The position numbers and the translations under genes were made by a program. Below the pieces are notes generated by a model. The model was given only the letters and a program-made list of their open reading frames with translations. It searched no databases and was not told where the DNA came from. Positions 2,014 through 63,285 of a stretch of 64,000 nucleotides of DNA are shown here, in pieces. Every line of letters starts with the position of its first letter. Within the stretch, counting starts at the first letter, position 1. This DNA is from Flavisolibacter longurius (GTDB taxonomy: Bacteria; Bacteroidota; Bacteroidia; Chitinophagales; Chitinophagaceae), in the NCBI GenBank assembly GCA_013327885.1, contig JABUMY010000001.1, positions 434,001-498,000 on the forward strand, written 5' to 3'.

Positions 2014-2083
2014 TGAAACGAGAAACGTGAAACGATAAACGAAAGACGTGAGACGGGAAATGTGAGACGTAAGATGAGAAACG
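2014..2083. repeat. Heptad array NNRRACG, ten units
   Basis: Ten consecutive 7-base units end in ACG or ATG: TGAAACG, AGAAACG, TGAAACG, ATAAACG, AAAGACG, TGAGACG, GGAAATG, TGAGACG, TAAGATG, AGAAACG. The array starts 15 bases upstream of the porZ start codon, in the porZ/MMPL divergent spacer. The same word family returns at 63202-63285. Confidence 0.85.
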
Positions 2084-2097
2084 TTGAAATGCAACAA

Positions 2098-2132
2098 CCA
2101 ACTCCAAACCACAAACCCCAAACTCCAAACTG
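2098..2132. repeat. Heptad array CCAAACN-type, five units
   Basis: The units are CCAACTC, CAAACCA, CAAACCC, CAAACTC and CAAACTG, ending 4 bases before the TATCTTCG box of the MMPL gene. The same word occurs at 34510-34537 and 37364-37398, each time just upstream of a plus-strand start codon. Confidence 0.8.
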
Positions 2133-2135
2133 CTC

Positions 2136-2143
2136 TATCTTCG
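2136..2143 (+). promoter_or_regulatory. Bacteroidota -7 box (TATCTTCG) for MMPL gene
   Basis: TATCTTCG fits TAnnTTTG with one change. It ends 5 bases before the ATG at 2149, so transcription would begin at or almost at the start codon (a leaderless or nearly leaderless mRNA). No clear -33 TTTG is visible because the heptad array occupies that position. Confidence 0.5.
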
Positions 2144-2148
2144 CCGTC

Positions 2149-4554
2149 ATGTGGAAGTCCATTGCCATTGCCGTACTGCGTTATAAAACCGTTTTACTTA
2201 TACTGCTTTTCCTGGCGACTGCCTTCTTTGGTTATCACGCCAGCCAGGTAAAGTTGGGCTATGATTTTGCAAAGGCTATTCCTACCGACAACCCAAAATA
2301 TCTCCAGTTTGAACGTTTTAAAAAAACCTTTGGCGACAACGGTGGCATGCTGGTCATTGCTGCGCAAACGGACCGGTTTTTTGATTCCAGCTTTTTTAAT
2401 GGATTTACAGCACTTCAAAGAGACCTGAAAAAAGTAAAAGGCATTGAAGGCATCCTGTCGGCGCCGGCGGCCGTTAATCTAGTTCGGGCCGAAAGTTCCG
2501 AACGCCTGCAGGCCGTTCCTATTTTCCCCGATACACTGCTTACGCAAGCGCAGATTGACAGCGGCAAAGCGGTGCTGCTGAACATACCTTTTTACCGCGG
2601 CTTGCTGTACAACCTGCAGTCCAACACCTGGATGATGGCTGCCACCGTGAACAACGCTCTTTTTAATTCGCCGGAACGCACCCAGATCATTGACAAGGTG
2701 ATGGCGTTGACAACAGCGTTTGAGGCGAAGCACAACATTGACCTGCGCATGAGTGGGTTGCCGCTTATCCGCACGATCTTATCCGACCGTATCAAAGCCG
2801 AAATGAAGTTTTTCCTGATTGGCTCCGTGGTGCTTTCGGCGCTAATTCTTTTGCTTTTTTTCCGGTCGGTTGGTGCCATGCTGCTTTCGCTGGTGGTGGT
2901 AGGAATCGGTGTGGTTTGGAGCGTGGGTTTTTTACACCTGATGGGATACAAAATTTCGCTGCTGACGGCGCTGATCCCACCCCTGGTTATCGTGATCGGG
3001 ATTCCCAACTGTATTTATTTCCTGAACAAATTCCATACAAGCTATAAAGAAACAGGCGACAAGCGGGAAGCCATCATACAGATGGTGAGCAAAATGGGAA
3101 TTGTAACCCTGTTTTGCAACATTGCCGCCGCCATTGGCTTTGCCGTGTTTGCGCTGACAAAAAGTGCCATTTTAAAAGAGTTTGGTGCGGTTGCCGGTGT
3201 CAACATCCTGGCCCTGTTCTTTATTTCACTCTTTCTTATTCCTGCGGTATTGAGCATGCTGCCGGCGCCAAAACCGCGTCACATGCGCTACCTGCAAAAT
3301 CACCGGCTGCAGCAATTGCTGGCAGGCGTGGAGCGCTGGTCGCTCCATCACCGGCGGTTAATTTTTGTTGTAACGGCAGTGGTGCTGGCCTTTTCTATTG
3401 TTGGCATTACGCGGTTGAAAAGCGTGGGCTACATTGTTGATGATGTACCGCAAAACGACGTGATCTACACCGACCTGAAATTTTTCGAGGAGAACTTTGG
3501 CGGCGTTATGCCCCTGGAGATTGTGGTGGATACCAAAAAGCGCCAGGGTGTTACCCGCAACCTGCAAAACCTGGTGAAGATCGATTCCTTGGTGCAATTC
3601 CTTTCTGCGCAGGCATACATTGGCAAACCGCTGACACTTACCGAAGGGTTGAAGTTTGCACGGCAGGCCTTTTTTGAAGGCGACAGTGCTTTTTACAGCA
3701 TGCCGGGCGACAACGACCTAATAGCCCTGCGGCCCTATCTATCGCAGAATGCCAGTGCCGATTCCGCCAATGCTGCCGGCGGAAAGGGTTTTACAAAACT
3801 GGTGTCTTCATTTATGGACGAAGAAAAGCAGCAGGCAAGGATTTCAGTCACCATGAAAGATGTGGGCTCGGAACGGTTGCCCTTTATCCTGGACAGCATC
3901 CAGGCGAGGGCAGAGCAGATCTTCAATCGCGACAGCATTGAAGCCTTAACCGCAAGCGCCGAAGAAAAGGAAGCAAACAAGGAAGATTCGCTTTGGGGCA
4001 AACGCAAATTTGAAGTAGAGCTGACCGGTGCATCAGTGACCTTTCTCGAAGGTTCACGCTTTATCATCAACGGGCTAAAGGAAAGCATCTTTTGGGCCTT
4101 TTTACTCATTGCCCTTTGCATGCTTTATCTTTTTCGTTCGCTGCGCATCCTTGTTTGTTCCCTGGTTCCCAATGTAATCCCGCTGATCACTACCGCCGGT
4201 ATCATGGGATGGACCGGTGTGCCGTTAAAACCTTCCACTGTATTGATCTTTAGTGTGGCGCTGGGTATTGCCATTGACATTACCATTCGCTTTCTTGTCA
4301 ACTACAAGCAGCAGCTGAAAGGCAATGAAGACAACGTAGAAAAAACGGTGATTGATACTATCTACTCTACCGGGTTAAGTATTATTTATACGTCTATCGT
4401 CTTAATTGCCGGCTTTGTTATTTTTTGCTTCAGCGGTTTTGGCGGAACAAAGGCATTGGGTTGGTTAACGTCTGTGACACTGGTGGCGGCAACTATAGCC
4501 AACCTGGTGCTGTTGCCGGCATTGCTGTTAGCCGTATACCGTCGCCAAAAATAA
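2149..4554 (+). CDS. RND/MMPL-family exporter
   Basis: An 801-residue membrane protein with the two-half RND layout. There is an N-terminal membrane helix (about 12-30), a large periplasmic loop, a five-helix block (about 230-390), a second helix and loop, and a final block (about 675-795). The first block reads IPPLVIVIGIPNCIYFLNKF, and the later block contains VALGIAIDITIRFL, the acidic motif expected for proton-coupled or hopanoid/lipid-type MMPL exporters. The frame is open further upstream, but those codons are heptad-repeat sequence, so the ATG at 2149 (MWKSIAIAVLRYK) is preferred. The substrate is unknown; hydrophobic molecules or envelope lipids are typical for the family. No membrane-fusion partner or TolC is adjacent. 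Confidence 0.85.
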   Translation: MWKSIAIAVLRYKTVLLILLFLATAFFGYHASQVKLGYDFAKAIPTDNPKYLQFERFKKTFGDNGGMLVIAAQTDRFFDSSFFNGFTALQRDLKKVKGIEGILSAPAAVNLVRAESSERLQAVPIFPDTLLTQAQIDSGKAVLLNIPFYRGLLYNLQSNTWMMAATVNNALFNSPERTQIIDKVMALTTAFEAKHNIDLRMSGLPLIRTILSDRIKAEMKFFLIGSVVLSALILLLFFRSVGAMLLSLVVVGIGVVWSVGFLHLMGYKISLLTALIPPLVIVIGIPNCIYFLNKFHTSYKETGDKREAIIQMVSKMGIVTLFCNIAAAIGFAVFALTKSAILKEFGAVAGVNILALFFISLFLIPAVLSMLPAPKPRHMRYLQNHRLQQLLAGVERWSLHHRRLIFVVTAVVLAFSIVGITRLKSVGYIVDDVPQNDVIYTDLKFFEENFGGVMPLEIVVDTKKRQGVTRNLQNLVKIDSLVQFLSAQAYIGKPLTLTEGLKFARQAFFEGDSAFYSMPGDNDLIALRPYLSQNASADSANAAGGKGFTKLVSSFMDEEKQQARISVTMKDVGSERLPFILDSIQARAEQIFNRDSIEALTASAEEKEANKEDSLWGKRKFEVELTGASVTFLEGSRFIINGLKESIFWAFLLIALCMLYLFRSLRILVCSLVPNVIPLITTAGIMGWTGVPLKPSTVLIFSVALGIAIDITIRFLVNYKQQLKGNEDNVEKTVIDTIYSTGLSIIYTSIVLIAGFVIFCFSGFGGTKALGWLTSVTLVAATIANLVLLPALLLAVYRRQK

Positions 4555-4866
4555 ATTTGCCCTATCCAAAATTCAACGAATTGACTTTCCTCCACCTGGC
4601 CTGAAAAACGCAGTTGCGTTAATGGCACCACATTGTCTGAAGGAATGGAAAAATGCAGGCATTCCATTCAAAAAAATTGAGGATTTGAAAAGAAGACAGG
4701 CCTGGAAGAGACTGCTTTGAACTCACATTGATTTTATTTGTTTATTATAAATGACGGGTTTTAAAAAAAATAGTGATATGCAATGCAGCGAAATGCTTAA
4801 ATATTAAGACTATTTATAACGTTCGTCCTTACAAATTGCACCCCTTCATTTAACAAAACAAAAATC
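4555..4866. other. Intergenic spacer before first SusC gene
   Basis: This 312-base AT-rich spacer holds no gene. An imperfect hairpin lies at about 4642-4664 (GGAATG paired with CATTCC) but has no T-tract. A TATAACGTTCG stretch near 4815-4825 sits where the other SusC genes have TATATTCG, so it may be a degenerate -7 element. An A-rich run precedes the ATG at 4867. Confidence 0.4.
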
Positions 4867-7800
4867 ATGAGAAGAATCCTGACGCTTATGCTCAGTATGC
4901 TGCTACTAAGTGTGCAGCTATTGGCACAAAATCGGACTATCAGCGGAAAAGTAACAGATGCCGCTGGTAATCCAATTGCCGGTGCTTCCGTACAGGTAAA
5001 GGGTACCAGTACCGGTACAGTAACAAAAGATGATGGTACGTTTTCCATCGCAGTTCCAAACACGGCCCGCATATTAACCATTTCGGCTGTGGGCCAGGCT
5101 ACGCAGGAACTAAGCCTTGGCGAAGAGACCAATGTCACTGTTTCGCTGCAGGCTGGTACACAGCAGGCCATGCAGGAAGTAGTGGTGGTTGGTTATAGCA
5201 CCACCACCCGCCAGGCCTTTACCGGTACGGCCAAAGTAGTATCCGGTGAACAATTAACCAATAAAAACGTTTCCAACGTATCGCAGGCTTTGGCTGGTGA
5301 GGTATCAGGTGTACGGGTAATCAATCCATCGGGTCAGCCGGGTACAGCGGCAACCATCCGCATTCGTGGTATTGGTTCGGTAAACGGTAACCGCGATCCG
5401 TTGTATGTAGTGGATGGCGTGCCGTTCACTGGTTTTGTCAGTTCCATCAACCCCAACGACATTGCTACGATGACCGTGCTGAAAGACGCTGCTGCCACGG
5501 CCATCTATGGTTCCAGGGGTGCCAATGGCGTTATTGTCATTACAACCAGGAATGGCCGCGGCAGGCAGTCTTTTATTGAGGCAGATGGCCGCGTGGGCAC
5601 AAATTTCTCCCTGTTGCCCCGCTACGAGGTACTGGAGTCGCCCGAAGAGTTTATTGGTTTGGCCTGGGAAGCCCTGTACAACCAGGGAGTTGCTCGCGGT
5701 AGTGCCAACCCCACCAACTTTGCCAATACAGGATTGTTTTCTACTGCAGGTATCGATCGCCGGAATAACATCTGGAATGCGGCCAATGGTGCTGAACTGA
5801 TTGATCCTGCTACAAGGTCGGTAAGACCCGGTATAACCCGCAAATTTGATCCGGAAGATTGGGAAGATTATGCGTTTCAGAATTCTATCCGCAGAGAAGC
5901 CAATATAAGGCTGGGCGGTGGCGATGCCCGCACCAATTATTACACGTCGTTCGGCTACCTGAAAGACGAAGGTTATTCTATCAACTCTGATTTTCGCCGC
6001 CTGAATGGCCGTATCAACTTAAACCATGAAGTAAAGTCCTGGCTGACCACTTCCTTTAATATCAATTACGCCAACAGTATTACCAATAACAACGGCCAGG
6101 AATCCAATTCCAACAGCGTTTTCTGGTTTGTTGACAACATGCCTCCCATCTACCCACTGTTCATGCGGGATGCATCCGGTGCATTTATGCCTGATCCAAT
6201 CTTTGGCGGCAACCGTTACGATTATGGAGAGACAGGCCGTAAGTTCGGCTCATTGACCAATGCTATAGCCGATGCCACGCTAAACACCCTGCGTTCTAAC
6301 CGTAATGATTTAACCGGTAATGCTTCAATTACCATAAAGTTTACACAAGACCTTTCTTTGGAAAACAGGCTGGGTGTACAGTACTACAACGATAACTACG
6401 TCAACCGCGAGAACAAGTTTTATGGTTCTTCCGCTTCACAAAATGGTTCCTTGTTCCAGCGCAGGCGTGAAATGATCAACACGAACCTGTTGAACATGCT
6501 CCGTTACGTGAAGCGCTTTGGCGAGCACAATGCAGAAATTCTGGCGGCGCATGAAGCTACCGACTGGAAATGGCAGCAATCTGCAGCTTCCGGTTACAAC
6601 CTGGTGGACAACTATGGCACTGAGTTGAGCAATGCCATTGTGATCAACCCTACTGCTAACTCGTATACAGACCGCAACAAGCTGGAAAGCTATTTCGCAC
6701 AGTTGAACTATGATTACAACCGTACCTATTATGTATCCGGAACAATCAGGAGAGACGGTTCTTCCCGCTTTCTTCCCGGTAAAAGATGGGGCACATTTGG
6801 TTCCGTCGGTCTCGGCTGGGTAATGACCAACGAAGACTTTATGCGTAACCTGGGGCCGGTAAACTACCTGAAGCTAAAAGCCAGCTATGGTATTTTGGGC
6901 GATCAGCAAGGTCTTGGCTACTATCCCGGTTATAGCCGTATTGACATTGGTAACCTGAACGACAATCCTTCATTTGGTGTTCCTGTGCCGGGTAATCCTG
7001 AACTGACCTGGGAAACAGCAAAAATGTTCCAGGCTGGCATTGAATTCAGAATGGGTACGTTTCTCACAGGTAATATTGACTACTATATCAAAAACACCGA
7101 TAACCTGATCTTCGATAGGCGAGTAGGGCCGTCAAATGGTTTTGCGCTGATCCAAGTAAACGATGGCCAGTTGCGCAACCAGGGTGTTGAATTTGATCTC
7201 ACCTTTCATTTGCTGAAAAAGCAGAATTACTTTCTTGACCTTGGTATCAATGGCGAGCATTTTACCAACAAGATAACGCAGATGCCAATTGACCCGTCAA
7301 CACAAACCAACAAAATCATTGATGTTCAGGGAAACTATGGCTGGGCGAAAGATCATTCCATCTTTGATTTTTACATGCGCAACTTTGTTGGCGTAGACCC
7401 TGCTGACGGAACAAGCACCTGGACCGTTTTTTACGATGATACCGACAACAACGGTGCCTTTGATGATGGTGAACAAGTGACCAACCTGGAACAATACTAT
7501 AGCGAGAATCCGGGCAAAAGAGGTGCGTTGAAAGAGGGAGTGACAAAAGTCTACTCTCAGGCTACCCAGTACTACATTGGCAAATCCGCCATACCAAAAT
7601 TGCGAGGCGGTATTAACCTTAGTGGAGGTTGGAAAGGCTTTGAGCTTTCTGCTACAATGTTGTACAGCTTTGGTGGATATGGTTACGATGGTGCCTATGC
7701 AGGGCTAATGCACAATGACCTGATTGGGAACAACAACTGGCATGTGAATATTCGTAACAGGTGGCAAAAGGCCGGCGATGTTACTGATGTTCCCCGCTTG

Positions 7801-8085: not shown

Positions 8086-8102
8086 TTTTTAAAGAAACAA
8101 GT

Positions 8103-9632: not shown

Positions 9633-9653
9633 AAAAGTCAATCGTTTTTGTAT

Positions 9654-9687
9654 AAAATCACGGCGCTCTATTGCCGTGATTTTTTTT
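9654..9687 (+). terminator. Intrinsic terminator after SusD pair 1
   Basis: An 11-bp perfect stem (AAAATCACGGC / GCCGTGATTTT) with an 8-base loop is followed by a T-run. The rest of the 9633-9933 spacer is AT-rich and holds only the promoter of the next SusC gene. The same stem sequence recurs at 16042. Confidence 0.85.
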
Positions 9688-33224: not shown

Positions 33225-33288
33225 TACAATTAAGATGGTTTTTTGCGTTGAATAGACTTATTTTGTCGCACCTCGGTTTGAGGGAGAG

Positions 33289-33296
33289 CAAAGATA
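33289..33296 (-). promoter_or_regulatory. -7 box (TATCTTTG) of alaS
   Basis: Plus-strand CAAAGATA reads TATCTTTG on the minus strand, a perfect TAnnTTTG. It gives alaS a leader of about 58 bases and lies just outside the GTGAGTA heptad array. Confidence 0.6.
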
Positions 33297-33302
33297 AGCA
33301 AG

Positions 33303-33411
33303 GTGAGTGGTGAGTAGTGAATGGTGAGTAGATTACAGCGTTTAGCTCAAAGAAGCGTTCTGTTTGAAGATCGAATGTTTCTTTACTCACCACTGACCAC
33401 ACACCATTCAC
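33303..33411. repeat. Inverted pair of GTGAGTA heptad arrays (33303-33330 and 33384-33411)
   Basis: The left arm has four units, GTGAGTG, GTGAGTA, GTGAATG and GTGAGTA. The right arm is TACTCAC, CACTGAC, CACACAC and CATTCAC, which on the other strand reads GTGAATG, GTGTGTG, GTCAGTG and GTGAGTA. The arms face each other across 53 bases in the alaS/M23 divergent spacer. Confidence 0.85.
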
Positions 33412-33423
33412 GCTGGCGTCGTC

Positions 33424-34395
33424 ATGAAAAAAATCAAGTACTACTATAATACCCATACGCTTCGCTATGAAAAGCTGATCACGCCGCTGCGGGTAAAGCT
33501 GCTGCGGGTATTTGGTTTTTTTGCCGCTGCTTTTGTCACGGCTGCGCTGATCGCCTATTTTGCTTTTCGCTTTGTGGGCTCACCGTACGAAAAACAACTA
33601 AGGGCCGAGAACGAACAACTGGAATACGAGTTGCAACGCCTTAACGAGCAGGTACGGTCCATCAACCAGCAAATGGCCACGCTGGAAAAGCGTGACAATG
33701 AAGTGTACCGCAGCATTTTTGAAGCCTCGCCCATTCCCGACAGCCTTCGCACCGTAGAAGCGGAAAGAGCGCAGGAAATTGCCAAGGTGGAAAGCTTGCC
33801 GGAAGGGCAACTGGTTTACGCCATCGATACTACCGTCCGGCGCATCCGGGCCCGCATCGCCGCCCAGCAAAAATCCTATACCGAACTGGCAAAGCTGGTC
33901 GATAAAAAAGAAGACATCCTGGCCGCCACGCCGGCTATCCAACCCGTGAGCAACAAAGACCTCAACCGCATCGCTTCCGGCTATGGCTACCGCATCGACC
34001 CTGTTTACAAAACCATTAAAATGCATGCGGGGCTTGATTTTGCCGCACCGCAGGGCACGCCCATTTATGCTACCGCCGATGGGGTGGTGAAAACCGCCGG
34101 CCAAAGCAGCGGCGGTTATGGCAACCACGTGGTGATCAACCACGGTTTTGGCTACGAAACGCTTTACGGCCACATGGTGCGCATCAAAGCCCGCAACGGG
34201 CAGCGGGTAAAACGCGGCGAAGTGATTGGGTACGTGGGCAGCACCGGGAAGTCTACCGGCCCGCACTGCCATTACGAAGTGCATAAGAACGGCCAAAAGC
34301 TTGACCCGGTTTATTTCTTTTACAACGACCTTAGTCCCCAGCAGTTTGACCAGTTGCTAAAACAAGCCAGCGCCTCCAACCAAAGCCTGGATTGA
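33424..34395 (+). CDS. M23-family (LytM) cell-wall endopeptidase
   Basis: 323 residues. One membrane helix (about 28-50), a coiled-coil periplasmic region (about 55-95), a linker, and a C-terminal LytM domain (about 175-305). The zinc ligands are visible: His201 and Asp205 in MHAGLDF, and His283 in HCHYEV; His250 lies in LYGHM. All catalytic residues are present, so it probably cleaves peptidoglycan cross-bridges rather than acting only as an activator. Its TGA stop is the first three bases of an 8-base repeat array. Confidence 0.92.
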   Translation: MKKIKYYYNTHTLRYEKLITPLRVKLLRVFGFFAAAFVTAALIAYFAFRFVGSPYEKQLRAENEQLEYELQRLNEQVRSINQQMATLEKRDNEVYRSIFEASPIPDSLRTVEAERAQEIAKVESLPEGQLVYAIDTTVRRIRARIAAQQKSYTELAKLVDKKEDILAATPAIQPVSNKDLNRIASGYGYRIDPVYKTIKMHAGLDFAAPQGTPIYATADGVVKTAGQSSGGYGNHVVINHGFGYETLYGHMVRIKARNGQRVKRGEVIGYVGSTGKSTGPHCHYEVHKNGQKLDPVYFFYNDLSPQQFDQLLKQASASNQSLD

Positions 34396-34472
34396 TGTGC
34401 GGATAGGCGGATGTGCAAATATGCGGATGTGGAAATGTGATAATGTGATAATTCGATAATGTGATAATGGCG
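34393..34472. repeat. Octad array starting in the M23 stop codon, ten units
   Basis: The units are TGATGTGC (its TGA is the stop codon), GGATAGGC, GGATGTGC, AAATATGC, GGATGTGG, AAATGTGA, TAATGTGA, TAATTCGA, TAATGTGA and TAATGGCG. The period is strictly 8 over 80 bases while the word drifts from GGATGTGC to TAATGTGA. Confidence 0.85.
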
Positions 34473-34493: not shown

Positions 34494-34537
34494 TTCGGCC
34501 TAAACAACCCCAAACGCCTAACGCCAAACCCCAAACC
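34494..34537. repeat. CCAAACN heptad array with conserved lead-in, before the MazG-like gene
   Basis: The lead-in TTCGGCCTAAACAACC is nearly identical to 37348-37363 (TTCGACCTAAATAACC). The units CCAAACG, CCTAACG, CCAAACC and CCAAACC (34510-34537) end 3 bases before the ATG at 34541. Confidence 0.85.
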
Positions 34538-34540
34538 CTT

Positions 34541-34864: not shown

Positions 34865-34968
34865 ACCTGGATTTGGGGGGATGGATTGGATTAATGGGAT
34901 AAACTGCCGCTTACCGCGATGTTGAAATCATCCGTTCATCCCTATAATCCCCCCAAATCAAGGTCCTG
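34859..34968. repeat. GTCTGAACC element, copy 1 (inverted arms)
   Basis: The left arm (34859-34900) begins GTCTGAACCTGGATTTGG and carries GGATT words. The right arm (34929-34968) is its imperfect reverse complement; read backwards it gives CTTGATTTGGGGGGAT against CTGGATTTGGGGGGAT on the left (15 of 16). The 28-base centre is unrelated to the centres of the other copies. Confidence 0.8.
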
Positions 34969-35006
34969 TTGGCGATGTTTTTGTAACGCATTGCCAAAGG
35001 GTTTGT

Positions 35007-37218: not shown

Positions 37219-37222
37219 GCCA

Positions 37223-37398
37223 GTTTGGTGTTTGGCGTTTGGGGTTGGCGTAGCTGTTTCATCAGGCGTTTTACTTGGCTTTTTTCACTACAGTAAAATT
37301 AGCAATAGAACTTTCGGTAAGATGTCTGATTGTATCGGCGCAACCTCTTCGACCTAAATAACCCCAAACTCCAAACGCCAAACACCTAACCCCAAACC
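37223..37398. repeat. Inverted pair of GTTTGGN / CCAAACN heptad arrays
   Basis: Left arm 37223-37250: GTTTGGT, GTTTGGC, GTTTGGG, GTTGGCG. Right arm 37364-37398: CCAAACT, CCAAACG, CCAAACA, CCTAACC, CCAAACC. The arms are reverse complements in word and enclose 113 bases in which nothing else is recognised. The right arm is preceded by the TTCGACCTAAATAACC lead-in shared with 34494. Confidence 0.85.
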
Positions 37399-37402
37399 CA
37401 CC

Positions 37403-37410
37403 TATCTTTG
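37403..37410 (+). promoter_or_regulatory. -7 box (TATCTTTG) of glycyl-tRNA synthetase
   Basis: Perfect TAnnTTTG only 8 bases before the ATG at 37419, implying a leaderless or nearly leaderless mRNA. The region where a -33 element would sit is CCAAACN array. Confidence 0.6.
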
Positions 37411-37418
37411 CCGCCATT

Positions 37419-52006: not shown

Positions 52007-52128
52007 CTCACTGGTTCACTTGTTCACAAGTTTACAAGTCAATAGAAAAAAGAAAGCCTTTCTGATTTAAAAATTCAGAAAGGCTTTTAAAAACTAGTGA
52101 ACTCGTGAACGAGTGAACTTGTAAACTT
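52006..52128. repeat. Inverted GTGAACTT octad arrays around a terminator
   Basis: Left arm 52006-52037: GCTCACTG, GTTCACTT, GTTCACAA, GTTTACAA. Right arm 52097-52128: GTGAACTC, GTGAACGA, GTGAACTT, GTAAACTT. The period is exactly 8 in both. They lie between the stop codons of two convergent genes, and the terminator at 52045-52091 sits between the arms. Confidence 0.9.
52045..52091. terminator. Bidirectional terminator between the EamA gene and frr
   Basis: A 13-bp perfect stem (AAAGCCTTTCTGA / TCAGAAAGGCTTT) with a 9-base loop, A-rich on its left and T-rich then A-rich on its right, so it can end both convergent transcripts. Confidence 0.85.
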
Positions 52129-52131
52129 ATA

Positions 52132-54935: not shown

Positions 54936-55221
54936 AGCCTCCTGTCCCCCGGTGGGGGAATTTAGGCCGGTCACACTTTTTGCTGTTTTATTTTTCTTAC
55001 AGTGAAACGGTTTTGTTCGATTGCTGAATAGTATTACAGAAAGTACAAGAGTGCGACGCAACAAAAGCTTTAAAGTAGCACATCTGCTAAGTACATAAAA
55101 AGAAAAATGCCTGTTTTTGCGACAGGCATTTTTTATTGGTGGAAAGTTATTGGTTAATGAAAGGCTGAAAAAAGAAAAGTGGCAATGACCTAAGTTCCCT
55201 CACCGGGGGACAGGGGGCCGC
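54936..55221. repeat. Inverted GC-rich arms around a terminator, convergent spacer
   Basis: The left arm (54936-54968) contains CCTGTCCCCCGGTGGGGGAA. The right arm (55189-55221) read on the minus strand gives CCTGTCCCCCGGTGAGGGAA. The arms start directly at the stop codons of the two convergent genes. The 220 bases between them contain only the terminator at 55104. Confidence 0.8.
55104..55136. terminator. Bidirectional terminator between transketolase and the LolC/E-type gene
   Basis: An 11-bp perfect stem AAAATGCCTGT / ACAGGCATTTT with a 7-base loop, with T's on the right and A's on the left. Confidence 0.85.
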
Positions 55222-56445: not shown

Positions 56446-56574
56446 AAGTTCACAGTTTACGCGTTTGCGGTGATGTGGTGAAAAGTTGATAGGTTGAGAA
56501 GTTAATAGGTTAATTAGTTAATACGTAGTTAGGTTGTGCCCATCTCACTTATCAACCTATTAACTTATTAACCA
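56438..56574. repeat. GTGAACTT and GTTAATAG octad arrays between rbfA and the LolC/E-type gene
   Basis: At 56438-56459 the minus strand reads GTAAACT, GTGAACTT, GTGAACTT, the last unit including the start codon of the permease gene. At 56485-56540 the plus strand has GTTGATAG, GTTGAGAA, GTTAATAG, GTTAATTA, GTTAATAC, GTAGTTAG, GTTGTGCC. At about 56547-56574 the word returns inverted (CTTATCAA, CCTATTAA, CTTATTAA, CC) and stops next to the rbfA stop codon. Confidence 0.85.
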
Positions 56575-56575
56575 G

Positions 56576-56962: not shown

Positions 56963-57062
56963 AAAGATTGATTAATTGTGACTGTCAGTCCCCGCCGAAG
57001 CCGGGCAGACGGGGTAAAATTACTTACTTTGCGTCTTTCCAAAACAGTGCCGCAGGCCACAC

Positions 57063-58883
57063 ATGAAGAAGTACGCCAGAGTTTTTACCTATTTAAGCCA
57101 GTACAAAGGCGAAGCCGTTCTCTATATTGTCTTTATTCTGTTGTCCATTGTTTTCTCGCTGGTTTCATTCGGGATGCTTCTTCCTTTCCTGGAAATGATC
57201 TTCAACGGCAACCAGTTGGGAGAGGGTGGCGGTATGCTGGGCAACTCTTCCAATCCCGTTGTCAACTATATCCGCAACTTTTTAACGGACAGCATTCAGC
57301 AACGCGGCAGCATTCCTACCCTGGGCATTATTTGTATCCTGATCATTGTTTCTATTTTTTTCAAGAACCTTTTTCTCTACCTCGCTTATTATATTTTAAA
57401 CCCACTAAAGAACAAGATTGTTAACCGGCTGCGTACCGAATTGTACGAAAAAGTGCTGCACCTGCCGATTGGCTTTTTTACAGAAAAGCGAAAAGGTGAT
57501 GTCATCAGCCGTATCACCAATGATGTCAGTGAGGTGGAAACGTCGGTGGTGGGTACACTGGAAGGCTGGGTGAGAGACCCCCTGACGATCCTGGTGACAC
57601 TGGCAACACTTTTCTTTATCAGCTACCAGTTAACCCTGTTTGTGTTGCTCTGTATACCGGTAGTGGGTTTTGTGATTGGCCGCATCAGCCGCAGCCTTAA
57701 AAAAGGTTCGGCAGAAGTGGCGCACCTCAACTCCGAATCGCTGTCGGTGCTGGATGAAACCCTGAGTGGACTGCGGGTCATCAAGGCGTTCAATGCAGAA
57801 CCCTTGCTGCGCAACCGTTTTTTTAGCATCAACGATAACCTGGTAACAGCTAAAAACAAAATTGGCTTTCGCCGCGACTTAGCCTCGCCGGCTTCGGAGC
57901 TGATGGGCGTAATGATCTTTACAGCCATACTTTTTTTTGGTGGCCAATTGGTACTGAGCGATCAGCTTTCCTTAACCGGTTCCCTCTTTATTGTTTACCT
58001 CGGCTTGTTTTACCAACTGATCAATCCTACCAAAACACTTTCGGCTTCATTCAGCAACATGGCCCGCGGTACAGCAGCCATTGAACGTATCGAAGAGATC
58101 CTGAAAACAAAAAGCGCTGTCGATGATAACCCTGCGGGTAAAACGCTGGATAACTTTTCTACCGGCATTGAGCTGCGCAACGTAACGTTTTCGTACGATG
58201 GAACGCCGATTTTAAAGAACATCAACGTCACCGTTCCCAAAGGAAAAACGGTGGCCCTGGTGGGATCTTCGGGTGCCGGCAAAAGTACACTGGCCGACCT
58301 GGTGCCGCGTTTTCATGATGTCAGCGGCGGCGAGCTCCTGATCGATGGGGTGAACATCAAGGATTATTCGCTTCGCTCTGTTCGGGAGCATATCAGCATT
58401 GTAACGCAGGAACCTATTTTGTTTAATGATAGCATTGCGTCCAATATCCTTTTGGGAAAACAGGATGCTACTGAAAAGGATCTGGAAGAAGCAGCCAAGG
58501 TGGCCAATGCGTACAACTTCATTACTAAAAAAGAAAAAGGCTTCCAAACCAATATTGGCGACAGGGGCACAAAGCTGAGCGGCGGCGAACGCCAGCGTCT
58601 CACCATCGCCCGGGCCATCGTCAAAAATCCGCCGATCCTTATTTTGGACGAAGCCACATCTTCCCTCGATACCGAAAGCGAACGCCTGGTGCAGGATGCT
58701 ATCAACAACATGATGCAAAACCGTACATCGATCGTGATTGCCCACCGCCTTTCCACCATCCGCCACGCCGATGAAATTCTCGTGCTGCAAAAAGGTGAGA
58801 TCGTTGAGCGGGGAACGCATGATGAATTGCTGCAAAAGCAGGGTTATTATTATAGATTGGTTCAGATGCAGGAGGTGAAGTAA
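57063..58883 (+). CDS. MsbA-like ABC exporter (fused membrane and ATPase domains)
   Basis: 606 residues. Six-helix transmembrane domain (about 20-320) with the ABC type 1 exporter pattern (FTEKRKGDVISRITNDVSEVE). Nucleotide-binding domain: Walker A VGSSGAGKST (near 400), Q-loop VTQEPILF, signature LSGGERQRL (near 505), Walker B ILILDEATSSLD and H-loop IAHRLSTIRHADEI. Homodimeric exporter of lipid A, other lipids or drugs. The TAA stop is followed immediately by a GTCTGAACC element. Confidence 0.93.
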   Translation: MKKYARVFTYLSQYKGEAVLYIVFILLSIVFSLVSFGMLLPFLEMIFNGNQLGEGGGMLGNSSNPVVNYIRNFLTDSIQQRGSIPTLGIICILIIVSIFFKNLFLYLAYYILNPLKNKIVNRLRTELYEKVLHLPIGFFTEKRKGDVISRITNDVSEVETSVVGTLEGWVRDPLTILVTLATLFFISYQLTLFVLLCIPVVGFVIGRISRSLKKGSAEVAHLNSESLSVLDETLSGLRVIKAFNAEPLLRNRFFSINDNLVTAKNKIGFRRDLASPASELMGVMIFTAILFFGGQLVLSDQLSLTGSLFIVYLGLFYQLINPTKTLSASFSNMARGTAAIERIEEILKTKSAVDDNPAGKTLDNFSTGIELRNVTFSYDGTPILKNINVTVPKGKTVALVGSSGAGKSTLADLVPRFHDVSGGELLIDGVNIKDYSLRSVREHISIVTQEPILFNDSIASNILLGKQDATEKDLEEAAKVANAYNFITKKEKGFQTNIGDRGTKLSGGERQRLTIARAIVKNPPILILDEATSSLDTESERLVQDAINNMMQNRTSIVIAHRLSTIRHADEILVLQKGEIVERGTHDELLQKQGYYYRLVQMQEVK

Positions 58884-58884
58884 G

Positions 58885-59020
58885 TCTGAACCGCGATTTG
58901 TAGGATTTGTAGGATTAGCAGGAGAAAAAGCTATCTGTAAATAGAAACGTCGTTCTGGTTAGGAACGACGTTTTTTATTTCAGGTAAATCATATTAATCC
59001 ACCCTAATCCTGGTTCAGAC
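58885..59020. repeat. GTCTGAACC element, copy 2 (inverted arms around a terminator)
   Basis: The left arm starts GTCTGAACCGC directly after the ABC gene's stop codon and holds 9-base units GATTTGTAG, GATTTGTAG, GATTAGCAG (58895-58921). The right arm (58993-59020) is TTAATCCACCCTAATCC followed by TGGTTCAGAC, reaching the stop codon of the acyl-CoA dehydrogenase gene. The terminator at 58945 sits between them. Confidence 0.85.
58945..58976. terminator. Terminator between ABC exporter and acyl-CoA dehydrogenase
   Basis: An 11-bp perfect stem AAACGTCGTTC / GAACGACGTTT with a 7-base loop and a T-run. Confidence 0.85.
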
Positions 59021-60168
59021 TATTTCAGTATCTCCCGGCTGATCACCACCTTTTGAATTTCGCTGGTGCCTTCACCAATTGTACAGAGTTTGCTGTCGCG
59101 GTAATGTTTTTCCACCGGGTAATCTTTCGTGTAGCCATAACCGCCGAAGATCTGCACAGCATCGTTGGCAACTTTTACCGCTACTTCGCTGGCGTAGTAT
59201 TTGGCCATGGCCGAGACCTTTGTTACCGGTTGCTTTTTTGATTTTAGGTCACAGGCTTCCAGGGTCAATAGTTCTGCCGCCTGGATCTCTGTTGCCATAT
59301 CGGCAAGCTTAAACGAAATGCCCTGGAAAGAAGCAATGGGCTTGTCGAACTGGTGCCGTTCCTGCGCATATTGAAGCGCTGCCTCATAAGCACCTTTGGC
59401 AATACCCAGCGAAAGCGATGCAATGGAAATGCGACCGCCATCCAGAATAACCAGCGATTGCTTGAAGCCTTCGCCTACTTCGCCCAGGCGATTAGCATCG
59501 GGAATAACACAGTTCTCAAAAATCATTTCCGCGGTTTCGGAAGCCCGCATACCCAGCTTGTTTTCTTTTTTGCCGCCGCTAAAACCAGGTGTGCCACGTT
59601 CCACCACAAAAGCGGTGGCGTTGTTCTTTGCACGAGGCTCGCCGGTCCGGCAAATGACAACGGCTATATCACCACTCTTGCCATGGGTAATCCAGTTTTT
59701 AGTACCATTGATCACCCAATTGTCGCCGTCTTTTACTGCCGTACACTGCATGTTGCCGGCATCGGAGCCGGTGTTGGGTTCTGTCAGTCCCCACGCACCA
59801 ATCCATTCGGCTGTAGCCAGTTTTGGCAGCCAGCGCTGTTTTTGCTCGTCATTGCCAAAAGCAAGGATATGGCCGGTGCATAGTGAATTATGCGCCGCCA
59901 CACTCAAGCCGATTGATCCGTCCACTTTGGCAATTTCTTCAATAATAGCTTTGTACTCAAAATACGAAAGACCGGCGCCGCCGTATTGTTCGGGCACCAG
60001 TACACCCATCATTCCAAGGTTGCCGAGTTGTTTAAAAATGTGCAGGGGAAATTCCTGCGTTTCATCCCATTCCATTACATGAGGCTTGATGTTTTGTGTA
60101 GCAAAATCACGGGCTGTCTGCGCCACCTGCGCAGTGATCTCATCCATCTCGAAATTCATATGTAGCAA
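59020..60168 (-). CDS. Acyl-CoA dehydrogenase
   Basis: 382 residues (379 from the second Met, MNFEMDEITAQV). Standard ACAD fold: GAWGLTEPNTGSDAGNMQC for FAD/substrate binding, the middle beta-domain (NGTKNWITHG), and the C-terminal helix bundle with FGGYGYTKDYPVEKHYRD and CTIGEGTSEIQ. The Glu in GEGT is at the position of the catalytic base of short-chain and butyryl-CoA dehydrogenases (YEGT). It performs alpha,beta-oxidation of acyl-CoA with ETF as electron acceptor. No other beta-oxidation gene is adjacent. Repeats of the same family flank it on both sides. Confidence 0.94.
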   Translation of the reverse strand: MLHMNFEMDEITAQVAQTARDFATQNIKPHVMEWDETQEFPLHIFKQLGNLGMMGVLVPEQYGGAGLSYFEYKAIIEEIAKVDGSIGLSVAAHNSLCTGHILAFGNDEQKQRWLPKLATAEWIGAWGLTEPNTGSDAGNMQCTAVKDGDNWVINGTKNWITHGKSGDIAVVICRTGEPRAKNNATAFVVERGTPGFSGGKKENKLGMRASETAEMIFENCVIPDANRLGEVGEGFKQSLVILDGGRISIASLSLGIAKGAYEAALQYAQERHQFDKPIASFQGISFKLADMATEIQAAELLTLEACDLKSKKQPVTKVSAMAKYYASEVAVKVANDAVQIFGGYGYTKDYPVEKHYRDSKLCTIGEGTSEIQKVVISREILK

Positions 60169-60181
60169 TCGTTTTAAGAAG

Positions 60182-60189
60182 TGAAGATA
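60182..60189 (-). promoter_or_regulatory. Possible -7 box (TATCTTCA) of the acyl-CoA dehydrogenase gene
   Basis: Plus-strand TGAAGATA reads TATCTTCA on the minus strand, 13 bases before the start codon at 60168. It differs from TAnnTTTG at two positions. Confidence 0.35.
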
Positions 60190-60191
60190 AT

Positions 60192-60329
60192 GTCGGAACC
60201 AGGATTTGGGTTAATGTGTTAGATTAATGGGATGTAAAAATCGTTATTTCGAAATATCGATTTCAGTAAAGACAAACCTGCCCTATCCTAAAAATCATTT
60301 CTATCCATCCAAATCCTGGTTCAGACAGT
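60192..60329. repeat. GTCTGAACC element, copy 3 (inverted arms)
   Basis: The left arm (60192-60230) is TCGGAACCAGGATTTGGG with TTAATG and GATTAATGG words. The right arm (60303-60329) is ATCCATCCAAATCCTGG followed by TTCAGACAGT. The TGA stop of the metallo-beta-lactamase-fold gene (60321-60323, minus strand) is inside the GTCTGAACC end. The centre is a different sequence from copies 1 and 2. Confidence 0.85.
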
Positions 60330-61094
60330 CAACTTTAATCCATCGTAAGCAAGATGGATGCCCTGCGGCAGGTTTTTTTCCACATCCCCGTGCTTCCCCA
60401 GCTGGTGGGAGATATGTGTGAAGTAGGCTTCCGGAACCTGGAGTTCCTGCACCAGCGCAATGGCTTCGTCGAGCGAAAAATGCGAAATGTGTTTTTCCCT
60501 GCGAAGCGCATTCACCACCAAAACTTTACTGCCCCTGATCTTTTCTTTTTCGCTTTCGTCAATGCGATTGGCATCGGTGATGTAGGTAAAATCGCCAAAG
60601 CGAAACGCAAACACAGGCATTTTCAGGTGCCATACTTCCAGTGGCAAAACAGGTATATCGCCAATGACAAACCGCTCGTTGTCGATAGTGTTCAGGGCAA
60701 TGTTGGGAACACCAGGGTATTTTTTATCGGCAAATGCATAGGCAAATTCACGCATCAGGGCATCGATGGTCATGGAGTTGGCGTACACTTCCATCGCTTG
60801 TTCCTGGAAGTAGTTGAAAGCACGTACATCGTCCAGTCCCGCAATGTGGTCTTTGTGTGGATGGGTAAACAGCACGGCATCGAGCCGCTTTACATTTTCC
60901 CGCAGCATTTGATAGCGAAAATCAGGTGTGGTGTCAACCACCAACGTTGTATTTGCCGATTGCACCATAATGCTGGAACGAAGCCGCTTGTCACGGTTAT
61001 CGGTGGAGGTACATACATTACATTCACATGCGATCATAGGTACGCCGCTGCTGGTGCCGGTGCCGAGAAAGGTGATGGTTAGGGAAGGGTTCAC
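60321..61094 (-). CDS. PhnP-like metallo-beta-lactamase-fold hydrolase
   Basis: 257 residues from a GTG at 61094 (NPSLTITFLGTGTSSGVP); the next in-frame Met is at residue 20, inside the fold. Metal motif HPHKDH at 78-83 (HxHxDH), with further candidate ligands HLKMPVFAFRFGDFTYITDAN and HISHQLG. Four Cys/His near 23-28 (CECNVC) could bind an extra zinc, as in PhnP-type phosphodiesterases. Probably a cyclic phosphodiesterase or RNase Z relative; substrate not determined. Its start codon is 3 bases from an octad array and its stop lies inside a GTCTGAACC element. Confidence 0.85.
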   Translation of the reverse strand: MNPSLTITFLGTGTSSGVPMIACECNVCTSTDNRDKRLRSSIMVQSANTTLVVDTTPDFRYQMLRENVKRLDAVLFTHPHKDHIAGLDDVRAFNYFQEQAMEVYANSMTIDALMREFAYAFADKKYPGVPNIALNTIDNERFVIGDIPVLPLEVWHLKMPVFAFRFGDFTYITDANRIDESEKEKIRGSKVLVVNALRREKHISHFSLDEAIALVQELQVPEAYFTHISHQLGKHGDVEKNLPQGIHLAYDGLKLTV

Positions 61095-61097
61095 GTT

Positions 61098-61193
61098 GTT
61101 GACTGGTTAATGAGTTAATGGGTTGAATGGTTAATAGGTTGATAAGTTGAATGGCTAACCTGTCAACTTATCAACCTATTAACTTATTAACTT
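61098..61193. repeat. GTTAATAG octad array with 20-bp perfect inverted repeat
   Basis: Eight plus-oriented units (GTTGACTG, GTTAATGA, GTTAATGG, GTTGAATG, GTTAATAG, GTTGATAA, GTTGAATG, GCTAACCT) are followed by four inverted ones (GTCAACTT, ATCAACCT, ATTAACTT, ATTAACTT). 61131-61150 and 61163-61182 are perfect reverse complements (20 bp, 12-base loop). The array fills the spacer: it begins 3 bases from one start codon and contains the TAA stop (61187-61189) of the other gene. Confidence 0.92.
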
Positions 61194-61474
61194 TCCCCGC
61201 CTTCCTGTGCGGCACGGTAGCGGCCCATGATGTCTTCAAACCATTTGCGGCTATCGGGTGTAAGGGTTTCCGCATCGATCTTTAATTGGGGCACGAGGTC
61301 AATGAGCGTATTGATGCGGCCTTCAAGCGGGAGAAATTTATTCAGCACCACCACCTTCCTGTCTTCCAAAATGCAAAACCCACTTTGAAAAGAGCCGCGT
61401 TCGTACCGAACGATATAGCCGCTCTCTTCAATCATCTTGTCAATTTTATCAAGTGTGGTTTGTGTGTATTTCAT
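61187..61474 (-). CDS. Small unknown cytoplasmic protein
   Basis: 95 residues from MKYTQTTLDKIDKM; the 11 upstream codons do not look coding. Acidic helices at both ends and a central strand region YIVRYERGSFQSGFCILEDR, then VVVLNKFLPLEGRINTLIDL. No signal peptide or membrane helix. I do not recognise a characterised family. The last codon (AGT) and the stop (TAA) are formed by the repeat array. It lies upstream of the metallo-beta-lactamase-fold gene on the same strand and may be co-transcribed with it. Confidence 0.7.
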   Translation of the reverse strand: MKYTQTTLDKIDKMIEESGYIVRYERGSFQSGFCILEDRKVVVLNKFLPLEGRINTLIDLVPQLKIDAETLTPDSRKWFEDIMGRYRAAQEGGES

Positions 61475-61628
61475 ATTTCGAGCCCTTTCCTTTGGCAGAC
61501 ATATCATCGTATCATTTGTTACCGGAAACTGCTAACAGAATGCCGGTAAATTGCAATGAAAGCCTTTTGCCACTAAGGCCGCAAGATACAAAGAAGACAG
61601 AATTGGCCGAAGTGCCGGCCCCGGGCAG

Positions 61629-63185
61629 TTACTTACTCACCATCTGCACCACCGGAACGATCATTTCTTCCAAACTAACCCCACCATGCTGAAACGTGTT
61701 CTTGTAATAATTCACGTAATGGTTATAGTTGTTCGGGTAGCAAAGAAAAACATCCTCGCCGCCAAAAATGTACGATGAGTTGATGCTGGGTGAGGGCAGC
61801 CCGATCTCTTTCGGGTCGCGAAAGGCCAGCACTTCCTTGGGATCGTAATTCAGGTTGCGGCCATGCTTGTACCGCAGGTTGGTGGTGGTTTGTTTGTCAC
61901 CGATCACCTTTACCGGTGTTTTTACTTTCACGCTGCCATGATCTGTGGCCAATACGATTTTTATGTTTTTATCGGCGATCTTTTTTAGCGCCTGGTGCAG
62001 CGGCGAATGTTCGAACCACGATGTGGTGATGCTGCGGTAACTCGTTTCATCACCGGCCAGCTCTTTCAGCACTTCCATTTCGGTACGGGCATGCGAGAGC
62101 ATATCCACAAAATTGTACACGATCACATTCAGGTCGTTGGTCATCAGGTTGTGTACATTGTTAACCAGGTCAAGACCGGCCTGGTTGTTCACCACTTTGG
62201 TATACGAAACCCGCAGGTTGCTTTCGCCAAGGGTCTTTAACTGGCCGCGTAAAAAATCTTCTTCTGAAAGATTTTTGCCGCCTTCTTCATCATCGTTCTT
62301 CCACTGCTGTGGAAATTTTTTTTCGATGTCGATGGGCAGCATACCGGAGAAAATGGCATTGCGGGCATAATGTGTTGCCGTGGGTAAAATGCTGTAGAAC
62401 GTATCTTCTTCCACCATGCGAAAGCTTTCGAGAAAGATGGGCATGATGCTGCGCCACTGGTCGAAGCGCAGGTTATCGATCAGCACAAAAAAGGTGGGAA
62501 CGCCTTTTTCTACCTGTGGAATGACCTTCTCACGGAAAAGCGTATGCGAAAGTACCGGCTTGTCTTTTACACCGGGTTTTAGCCAGGACGTGTAGTTGCG
62601 TGAAATGAACTTAAAGAACTCTGTGTTGGCTTCACCTTTTTGGGTTTGAAACACTTCCTGCATTTCCGGACTGTCGCTGCGCTGTAGGCTCAGTTCCCAG
62701 TGCACCAGTTCTTTGTAAATACCCATCCATTCGGTGTGATTCGGATTGGAGTTAAGCGCCATAAAAAGATTGCGAAACTGCTGCTGGTAGGCCGTGGTCG
62801 TTTTTTCGGCCACCAGCCGCCGGTTGTCGATGATCTTTTTCAGTGAAAGCCATACCTGGTTTGGGTTTACTGGCTTGATAAGGTAGTCCGAGATCTGGCT
62901 GCCGATGGCTTCATCCATCAGGTTTTCTGTTTCGTTTTTGGTGATGAGCACAACGGGTATCTGCGCATTCACCTCCTTTATTTTTGATAGTGTTTCCAGA
63001 CCTGTGATGCCCGGCATGGTTTCGTCGAGCAACACCACATCAACGGCGTTTTCTTTTACATAATCGATGGCATCAAACCCATTGGTGAGCGTTTGTACAT
63101 CGTATCCTTTATTCTGTAAAAAGATTTTTTGCGATTGCAGGCTTTCTATTTCATCATCTACCCATAAAATCTTGGCAAGGGACAT
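61629..63185 (-). CDS. porX: PorX-type response regulator with PglZ/alkaline phosphatase-like domain
   Basis: 518 residues. An N-terminal receiver domain (about 4-120) has the acidic pair Asp10/Asp11, phospho-acceptor Asp54 in VVLLDETMPG and Lys in DYLIKPVNP. A helical linker leads to a PglZ domain (about 215-518) with FFVLIDNLRFDQWR, the TATHYARNAIFSGMLP segment and metal-binding VLATDHGS, all needed for the phosphodiesterase fold. In Porphyromonas PorX with PorY controls type IX secretion genes through sigma P and cleaves oligonucleotides. porY and porL/M are not in this window. Confidence 0.93.
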   Translation of the reverse strand: MSLAKILWVDDEIESLQSQKIFLQNKGYDVQTLTNGFDAIDYVKENAVDVVLLDETMPGITGLETLSKIKEVNAQIPVVLITKNETENLMDEAIGSQISDYLIKPVNPNQVWLSLKKIIDNRRLVAEKTTTAYQQQFRNLFMALNSNPNHTEWMGIYKELVHWELSLQRSDSPEMQEVFQTQKGEANTEFFKFISRNYTSWLKPGVKDKPVLSHTLFREKVIPQVEKGVPTFFVLIDNLRFDQWRSIMPIFLESFRMVEEDTFYSILPTATHYARNAIFSGMLPIDIEKKFPQQWKNDDEEGGKNLSEEDFLRGQLKTLGESNLRVSYTKVVNNQAGLDLVNNVHNLMTNDLNVIVYNFVDMLSHARTEMEVLKELAGDETSYRSITTSWFEHSPLHQALKKIADKNIKIVLATDHGSVKVKTPVKVIGDKQTTTNLRYKHGRNLNYDPKEVLAFRDPKEIGLPSPSINSSYIFGGEDVFLCYPNNYNHYVNYYKNTFQHGGVSLEEMIVPVVQMVSK

Positions 63186-63201
63186 AGCTTATTCTTTTTG
63201 G

Positions 63202-63285
63202 TGAAACGGCAAACGTCAAACGGGAGATAGGAGAGACCGCTGTTTGAAACGGACTCCGGTTTAACGTCTGACGTTTCACGTTTGT
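63202..63285. repeat. Inverted NNRRACG heptad arrays in the porX / HD divergent spacer
   Basis: The left arm has TGAAACG, GCAAACG, TCAAACG (63202-63222). The right arm (63257-63285) read on the minus strand gives TGAAACG, TCAGACG, TTAAACC. This is the same word family as 2014-2083, 61 kb away. Confidence 0.8.

What the first reader, a model, noticed from the sequence alone, without database searches (positions are those of the whole stretch)
2014..63285. Locus-specific 7-, 8- and 9-base tandem arrays fill most non-Sus intergenic spacers
Seen directly: arrays at 2014, 2098, 33303, 33384, 34393, 34510, 37223, 37364, 52006, 52097, 56438, 56485, 58895, 61098, 63202 and 63257 each keep an exact unit length (7, 8 or 9) while the bases drift. 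Each spacer has its own word (NNRRACG, CCAAACN, GTGAGTA, GGATGTGC, GTGAACTT, GTTAATAG, GATTTGTAG). Many occur as two arms of opposite orientation with a terminator or unrelated centre between. Simple slippage would give identical units; here period and orientation are conserved but sequence is not. The SusC/SusD blocks lack them. I have a general, unverified impression that similar words are common in related genomes, but know of no named element or mechanism. They could be long imperfect stem-loops that insulate transcripts, footprints of a small mobile element, or products of an unusual templated synthesis.
Basis: partly seen in the sequence, partly recalled or inferred. Interest (0 to 1): 0.82.

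Follow-up and report, generated by a model that had tools for sequence, protein, structure and literature searches.

The report
Paired degenerate-word arrays at gene borders
Between many genes of this bacterium lie pairs of short, imperfectly repeated 7- or 8-letter DNA words that face each other and touch the ends of the neighbouring genes; the pattern is real, also occurs in related and some unrelated bacteria, resembles repeats reported in Xanthomonas, and how it is made is unknown.

Summary
In 764 spacers (window plus 60 regions picked by position, 1.26 Mb) there are 134 period-7 and 54 period-8 arrays, against 2.6 and 3.2 after resampling. Arrays abut stop codons, are commonest between convergent genes and rarest between divergent ones, and pair as inverted arms: 38 of 47 two-array spacers run G-rich then C-rich, 1 the reverse; arms share a word family in 18 of 38, 3.3 expected. 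Words are not locus-private: 15 clusters of five or more arrays recur genome-wide, and one word occurs in records of other phyla. At the freest position, adjacent units agree no more than units of different loci in 8 of 12 families, so plain slippage fails as the general cause. Against a sister species (probably Flavisolibacter longurius) some spacers have both arms of another family. I found no sign of selection for RNA pairing and none on word cores in anchored arrays. RAYT-like genes carry other palindromes. Closest precedent: convergent GGGANTN heptamers of Xanthomonas (PMC4692102). I file it as a new variant of that kind. Best guess: a DNA-level copying process spreads paired arms; selection limits where they persist.

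The parts
2015..2074 (+). left arm, period 7, GARACGN family
2100..2131 (-). right arm, period 7, CCAAACN (GTTTGGN on - strand), different family from the left arm; below the threshold of my own scan, reported by TRF
33302..33331 (+). left arm, period 7, GTGARTR family, between divergent genes
33384..33411 (-). right arm, GTGARTR inverted, contains the GTCAGTG unit; found as inverted partner, not as an array
34394..34469 (+). left arm, period 8, compound GGATATGC-like then GATAATNN
34506..34538 (-). right arm, period 7, GTTTGGN inverted (different family from the left arm)
37223..37250 (+). left arm, period 7, GTTTGGN, 4 nt after a stop codon
37360..37399 (-). right arm, GTTTGGN inverted, 19 nt before the start of a class II tRNA-synthetase-like gene
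52008..52039 (+). left arm, period 8, GTTCACNN, 1 nt after a stop codon
52046..52091 (.). centre: terminator-like hairpin between the arms (limits approximate)
52092..52131 (-). right arm, period 8, GTGAACNN (inverted GTTCACNN), abuts the opposing stop codon
56438..56454 (+). short GTTCACAA array at a gene start, outside the main pair
56485..56523 (+). left arm, period 8, GTTRATAR
56547..56572 (-). right arm, GTTRATAR inverted, 3 nt from a stop codon; the pair is not in the orthologous spacers of G006, G009 and G015
58895..58923 (+). period-9 GATTTGTAG array inside a GTCTGAACC...GGTTCAGA repeat; a different kind of element
61098..61158 (+). left arm, period 8, GTTRATAR; turns into the right arm with almost no centre
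61160..61193 (-). right arm, GTTRATAR inverted
63202..63222 (+). left arm, period 7, GARACGN
63254..63279 (-). right arm, GARACGN inverted; found as inverted partner, not as an array

Best explanation
These are dispersed short repeats that tend to exist as inverted pairs of quasi-tandem arms. An arm is typically 3 to 8 copies of a degenerate 7- or 8-base word (for example GTTTGGN, GTGARTR, GARACGN, GTGAACNN, GATATTNN, GTTRATAR), read inward from the border of the flanking gene, with an unrelated centre that often holds a terminator. A DNA-level process, not yet identified, copies or writes paired arms of one word family into spacers and now and then replaces both arms with another family. Selection against damage to genes and promoters leaves survivors mainly in spacers, tight against stop codons. 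Once in place, arms decay much like the rest of the spacer, so a host function is not needed. Shown: pairing, polarity, family concordance, family differences between sister species, placement, lack of slippage homogeneity at the freest positions of most families. Inferred: joint arrival of the two arms and the copying process itself.
For: Excess of periods 7 and 8. Polarity G-rich then C-rich 38 of 47, reverse 1; 60 of 72, reverse 1, in the larger sample that includes word-chosen regions; F. longurius 9 of 11, reverse 0. Inverted partner on the inner side at score 24 or more: 25 of 108 single arrays and 73 of 133 others, against direct copies 2 and 3, other spacers 3 and 9, and 1 of 115 on the outer side. 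Same family in both arms 18 of 38, expected 3.3, largest of 5000 permutations 10; 32 of 60 vs 6.3, largest 15, in the larger sample. Of 168 orthologous spacers shared with G006, 23 have arrays in both, 12 and 7 in one only. By eye, both arms belong to a clearly different family in five spacers (52007, 58884, 61095; o1_21, o6_24) and to kin words in three more. 33225-33423 has GTGAGTG arms in two species and GTGAAAC arms in two others. Inner flanks GGCGTA or TTTAGG follow several GTTTGGN arms (by eye). Same word and polarity in named records: inverted partner downstream in 33 of 63 Bacteroidota matches and 6 of 19 others, upstream 0 and 1. Anchored cores: 30/423 changed vs 6.9% expected. Convergent 47/145, tandem 83/467, divergent 13/152.
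Against: No mobiliser found. Inner flanks of the same family match in 64 of 2145 pairs (outer 21 of 2255, other families 7 of 2217), but the printed examples are mostly the partner arm, so shared centres are not shown for most families. Unit order across loci beats unit shuffling clearly only for GTGARTR (40 pairs share a 24-mer, mean 19, max 37 of 200); for GTTTGGN it equals the shuffle (5 vs 4.1; 26 vs 36 at 18), which sits badly with recent copying of ready-made arms. 20 of 38 pairs are discordant. Direct copies downstream also occur in named records (12 of 63, 4 of 19). G003 has one reverse-polarity spacer in 5. Target-site duplications were not examined. Unanchored, or set against free positions, cores do look slower (7.3% vs 11.8%, p 8e-5), so weak constraint is possible.
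Confidence: 0.5

Rival explanations
1. Templated end synthesis: after a break in a spacer a polymerase adds G-rich 7- or 8-base words with one or two unfixed positions to both 3' ends (as I recall for telomerases with an imprecise template position), and the ends are then joined. Each event would write a new word on both sides.
For: On both sides the G-rich strand points inward. Free positions can be unit-independent (GTTTGGN: adjacent identity 0.28, cross-locus 0.33). Arrays absent from the sister are already heterogeneous (all-pairs unit difference 0.258 in 14 arrays), though loss in the sister would explain this too. Arms sometimes meet with almost no centre (61098-61193). Both arms can differ together between species.
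Against: No enzyme or template identified; the one RVT_1 gene found has no array near it. The same word occurs in records of several phyla. Some arrays are homogeneous and look like slippage.
Confidence: 0.17
2. Selected bidirectional insulators: the pair with its central terminator forms a long hairpin that stops read-through between neighbours.
For: Most frequent between convergent genes; in two spacers read by eye the central terminator is kept between species (o1_36, o1_78); the four window pairs folded are far more stable than shuffles, z -4.8 to -10.1.
Against: G.U and A.C mismatches are equal on the transcribed strand (64 vs 63 tandem; 44 vs 36 convergent; 15 vs 10 divergent); arms also lie between divergent genes; cores change like flanks when anchored; 621 of 764 spacers have no array.
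Confidence: 0.18
3. Ordinary microsatellites: local slippage with period 7/8 followed by drift.
For: Heptamers are over-represented among longer repeats in many bacteria (stated in PMC4679880 and PMC4692102, passages read). Some arrays are homogeneous (L015 7955, L020 5151, L025 9549). One orthologous arm differs by two whole units (o6_9). Unit similarity falls with distance along arrays. In 4 of 12 families adjacent units agree more than units of different loci at the freest position, by 0.10 to 0.27.
Against: In 8 of 12 families the difference is 0.05 or less; the same words stand at many loci and in other genera and phyla; inverted pairing and fixed polarity.
Confidence: 0.1

Closest known systems
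G-rich heptamer repeats GGGAATC / (GGGANTN)n of Xanthomonas and GGGGA(C/T)T of Nostoc (Rehm et al. 2015, PMC4692102; abstract and found passages seen)
   Same: Heptamers with fixed and free positions; four units preferred; 70 and 75 convergent inverted pairs in two Xanthomonas genomes; within 50 bp of stop codons on the sense strand and upstream of ORFs on the antisense strand; under-represented between divergent genes; generally not tied to IS elements.
   Different: One word type there, studied as quadruplex formers, and few pairs in Nostoc. Here some fifteen word clusters in one genome, most without runs of three G, periods 7 and 8, and orthologous spacers that can differ in the word of both arms.
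REPINs / REP doublets (Bertels and Rainey 2011, PMC3116915; passages seen)
   Same: Extragenic inverted pairs with a less conserved spacer.
   Different: REPIN ends are conserved 16-mers linked to RAYT genes; here arms are degenerate word arrays and the RAYT-like genes of this genome stand beside other palindromes.
TAACTGA direct repeats of Beggiatoaceae, cyanobacteria and five Bacteroidetes (MacGregor 2015, PMC4679880; passages seen); cyanobacterial STRR heptamers (name recalled; Calothrix heptamers mentioned in PMC4692102)
   Same: Intergenic heptamer arrays of phylogenetically scattered occurrence, often near starts or stops.
   Different: One fixed word; in the main genome 169 direct sets and one indirect.
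Fold-back elements of Drosophila (recalled, nothing read)
   Same: Long inverted arms made of short tandem repeats around a variable centre.
   Different: Different domain of life, far larger; no sequence link tested.

Membership tests
Xanthomonas/Nostoc G-rich heptamer repeats | heptamer units with fixed and free positions | tested here: met
   period 8 also occurs
Xanthomonas/Nostoc G-rich heptamer repeats | convergent pairs; close to stop codons; rare between divergent genes | tested here: met
Xanthomonas/Nostoc G-rich heptamer repeats | G-tracts able to form quadruplexes | tested here: not met
   read from the consensus words: GTGARTR, GARACGN, GTGAACNN, GTTRATAR, GATATTNN lack runs of three G; GTTTGGN has them when N is G. 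No folding assay.
REPIN | inverted pair with variable spacer | tested here: met
REPIN | RAYT gene flanked by the same repeat | tested here: not met
   8 of 8 Y1_Tnp loci have no period-7/8 array within 350 b; 2 of 8 have one farther off (364 b; 851 and 951 b); palindromes beside the genes seen by eye
MITE | conserved internal sequence shared by copies | tested here: inconclusive
   inner flanks match in 64 of 2145 pairs vs 7 of 2217 between families, but mostly through partner arms; L015/L020 share a true flank
MITE | target-site duplication | not tested
   boundaries in presence/absence pairs too divergent to read safely
slippage microsatellite | neighbouring units share variants | tested here: not met
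   not met in 8 of 12 families at the freest position, met in 4; also met in a few homogeneous arrays
known Rfam RNA | match to a curated family | tested here: not met
   0 matches in the window at gathering threshold; other regions not searched

The most novel reading that the evidence does not exclude
A bacterial end-writing activity: a polymerase with a short internal or RNA template, imprecise at one or two positions, writes 7- or 8-base G-rich words onto both ends of broken spacers, so that each paired array is the scar of one repair event, and different templates give the word families, some of them shared across phyla.
Probability: 0.13. Interest if true: 0.93.

Novelty: new variant of a known kind. 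Interest (0 to 1): 0.62.

Why it matters
In this sample 143 of 764 spacers carry such arrays. Because the same placement, pairing and polarity occur with many words that lack G-runs, quadruplex formation, studied for the Xanthomonas repeats, is unlikely to be the general reason for the architecture. Word differences between sister species give a direct way to watch how the arrays are made.

Tried and rejected
Slippage alone: disfavoured by free positions in 8 of 12 families and by word recurrence. RNA hairpin selection: no strand bias. One arm copied from the other with unit order kept: within-spacer similarity of same-family arms is not above cross-spacer similarity (1.25 vs 1.37). Against this, with best-aligned segments, two of four families score higher within a spacer (RAACG 1.31 vs 0.94, TTRATA 1.40 vs 1.09) and two about equal, so it is not excluded for those two. 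Gene-cassette borders: arrays are not commoner where gene adjacency is lost (35/141 kept vs 11/46 lost). RAYT or reverse transcriptase as mobiliser. Purifying selection on cores: a naive count looked strong (39/379 core vs 66/233 free; 35/343 vs 62/211 ungapped); after correcting for array detection it vanished in anchored arrays. Words as paper-search terms: 36 papers held one, 30 were listed, and none of the listed titles concerns bacterial repeats. One search stopped with a script error after two of eight loci; one search did the other six.
Full report
OBSERVATION. The window is G000:C11:434001-498000 of a 5.75-Mb genome. Two contigs of relative G006 measure 177,534 and 138,253 b, the lengths of two records of Flavisolibacter longurius BT320, so G006 is probably that species and the window a sister species in its genus (inference). 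The sequence at all 16 positions is as described; TRF reports 14 of them and the other two are inverted partners. In 764 spacers of 30 b or more (193 kb, from the window plus 60 regions picked by position) I count 134 period-7 and 54 period-8 arrays against 2.6 and 3.2 after resampling each spacer; period 6 gives 16 vs 3.6, other periods are near chance. In the same sample 190 non-overlapping arrays lie in spacers and 25 inside coding sequence. Eight of 36 window spacers carry period-7/8 arrays, so 'most' is an overstatement. Gene calls are my own codon-usage calls; stops are exact, starts approximate.

ANATOMY. Arrays occur in 47 of 145 convergent, 83 of 467 tandem and 13 of 152 divergent spacers. 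Next to a stop codon their edge lies a median 6 nt away (87 of 123 within 10), next to a start 24 nt (67 arrays). At starts some end beside TATCTTTG-like boxes, which I recall as the Bacteroidota -7 element. Of 47 two-array spacers in the position-picked sample, 38 run G-rich then C-rich and 1 the reverse, the rest being 3 C-C, 2 G-G and 3 with a balanced arm; both arms share a family in 18 of 38, 3.3 expected. With the word-chosen regions the figures are 60 of 72, reverse 1, and 32 of 60 vs 6.3. The single reverse case is window 52007-52131 with GTTCACNN/GTGAACNN, a word nearly balanced in G and C; in other printed spacers with this word GTTCACNN also tends to stand on the left (by eye). In relatives the order is 9 of 11 in G006, 1 of 1 in G009, 3 of 5 in G003 with one reverse, 3 of 3 in G015. 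An inverted partner is found almost only on the inner side. Some spacers are nested or compound, with words changing along one array. Four window pairs fold with z-scores of -4.8 to -10.1.

WORDS. Clustering of 276 arrays gives 15 clusters of five or more. In GTTTGGN (31 arrays, 135 units) six positions are 84-100% one base and the seventh is A .30, C .15, G .46, T .10, equal in adjacent units 28% of the time and in units of different loci 33%. At the freest position the adjacent minus cross-locus difference is 0.05 or less in 8 of 12 families; it is 0.10 to 0.27 in the other four (GATATTNN, GGCAATN, GGCAGTA and TTACAGT clusters), and some secondary positions also show adjacent similarity, for example 0.68 vs 0.49 in GARACGN. 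Unit order is shared between loci clearly above unit shuffling only for GTGARTR; the GTTRATAR cluster reaches the shuffle maximum at 18 bases (17 pairs). A few arrays are homogeneous and long, consistent with slippage bursts.

EVOLUTION. Of 168 orthologous spacers shared with G006 (median protein identity of orthologues 88%), 23 have arrays in both, 12 only here, 7 only there, 126 in neither; with G009 (29 spacers) 3, 4, 1 and 21. Flanking genes stay while both arms change: 33225-33423 has GTGAGTG arms here and in G006 and GTGAAAC arms in G009 and G003, with the outer flank still homologous; 37219-37418 has GTTTGGN here and in G006 but CCCCCT...GGGGG arms in G009 and G003. By eye five spacers differ clearly in family between this genome and G006, and three have kin words. 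Central terminators can be kept (o1_36, o1_78). A naive count suggested conserved cores (39/379 vs 66/233). Corrected for detection, and counting each orthologous pair from both sides, cores in flank-anchored arrays (22) change at 30/423 (7.1%) against an expected 6.9%; with looser anchoring (27) 6.6% vs 8.5% (p 0.07), with none (37) 7.3% vs 11.8% (p 8e-5), where register errors intrude. Free positions in the anchored set changed at 22%, half of which is 11%, so weak constraint on cores cannot be excluded.

FUNCTION TESTS. In 152 inverted pairs (3410 of 3865 columns paired) G.U and A.C mismatches on the transcribed strand are 64 vs 63 in tandem spacers, with 44 vs 36 convergent and 15 vs 10 divergent. 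Arrays are not commoner where gene adjacency is lost. The genome has 8 Y1_Tnp genes (RAYT-like, a label I recall) beside palindromes seen by eye; none has a period-7/8 array within 350 b. One RVT_1 gene was found (two hits in one frame). Rfam gave no match in the window.

DISTRIBUTION. GTGARTR three times in a row occurs in 20 of 296 Bacteroidota genomes, 73 times here and 177 times in another genus of the family; the backward control pattern matched 19 times here. By the titles, 44 of the 80 are Chitinophagaceae (genus placement recalled), 19 other or unplaced Bacteroidota and 17 other phyla. Of those 17, 16 are MAG records that may be misbinned; the isolate is Mesorhizobium atlanticum, where the pair starts 3 nt after a TAA. 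In 78 of the 80 loci, 33 of 63 Bacteroidota matches and 6 of 19 others have an inverted partner downstream, 0 and 1 upstream, and 12 and 4 a direct copy downstream. Of six further regions, L281-L283 have intergenic period-7 arrays, L284 and L286 none, L285 one inside coding sequence.

COMPARISON. Rehm et al. 2015 (PMC4692102; abstract and passages) describe the same placement, polarity and convergent pairing for a G-rich heptamer in Xanthomonas, show quadruplex formation in vitro, and state that they could not identify a role in gene regulation. Here the architecture persists with words that lack G-runs. REPINs (PMC3116915, passages) share the inverted pair with a less conserved spacer but are linked to RAYTs. 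MacGregor 2015 (PMC4679880, passages) reports one fixed heptamer. I found no report of multi-word paired arrays in ten searches of this library, which lacks most subscription papers.

CONCLUSION. A real, genome-wide architecture that does not depend on one word, best read as paired short arms spread by a DNA-level process and left where they do least harm. Its generator is unknown. Independent free positions and joint differences between species keep a templated end-writing reading open.

Noticed in passing
window 54936-55221: A CCTCCTGTCCCCCGGTGGGGGAA inverted pair with a terminator-like centre; by eye, parts of the centre recur in orthologous spacers of G006 where this genome has other repeats. 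It resembles the intrastrand-triplex motifs of PMC4666352 (passages seen).
   Followed up: partly
window 55040-55070 (similar), and spacers of the sample: A separate interspersed motif, TTGCGTCGCACACT, occurs in 8 of 954 spacers; a near copy lies in a window spacer centre.
   Followed up: no
window 34865-35006, 58884-59019, 60160-60320: GTCTGAACC/GGATTTGGG...CCAAATCCTGGTTCAGAC-like inverted repeats, another spacer family; at 60160 also in G006 and G009.
   Followed up: no
window 33225-33423; spacer o1_32 of G000:C11: Spacers 97 and 98% identical to those of G006, far above most other spacers compared: recent exchange or real constraint.
   Followed up: no
L025 9549-9682 (end of G000:C8) and start of G000:C21: Contigs end inside long GTTTGGA-type arrays, so the longest arrays may break the assembly.
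   Followed up: no
L015 7955 and L020 5151: Two long homogeneous arrays share about 30 b of inner flank, which looks like a true dispersed copy.
   Followed up: no
L147-L154: Y1_Tnp genes beside inverted sets of palindromes such as CCACCGGTNNNACCGGTGG and AAGCCCGGAGGGCTT; L153 has a stop inside.
   Followed up: partly
L212 (Mesorhizobium atlanticum): The word pair lies between what look like ribosomal protein genes S13 and S11 (gene names from recall, not searched).
   Followed up: no
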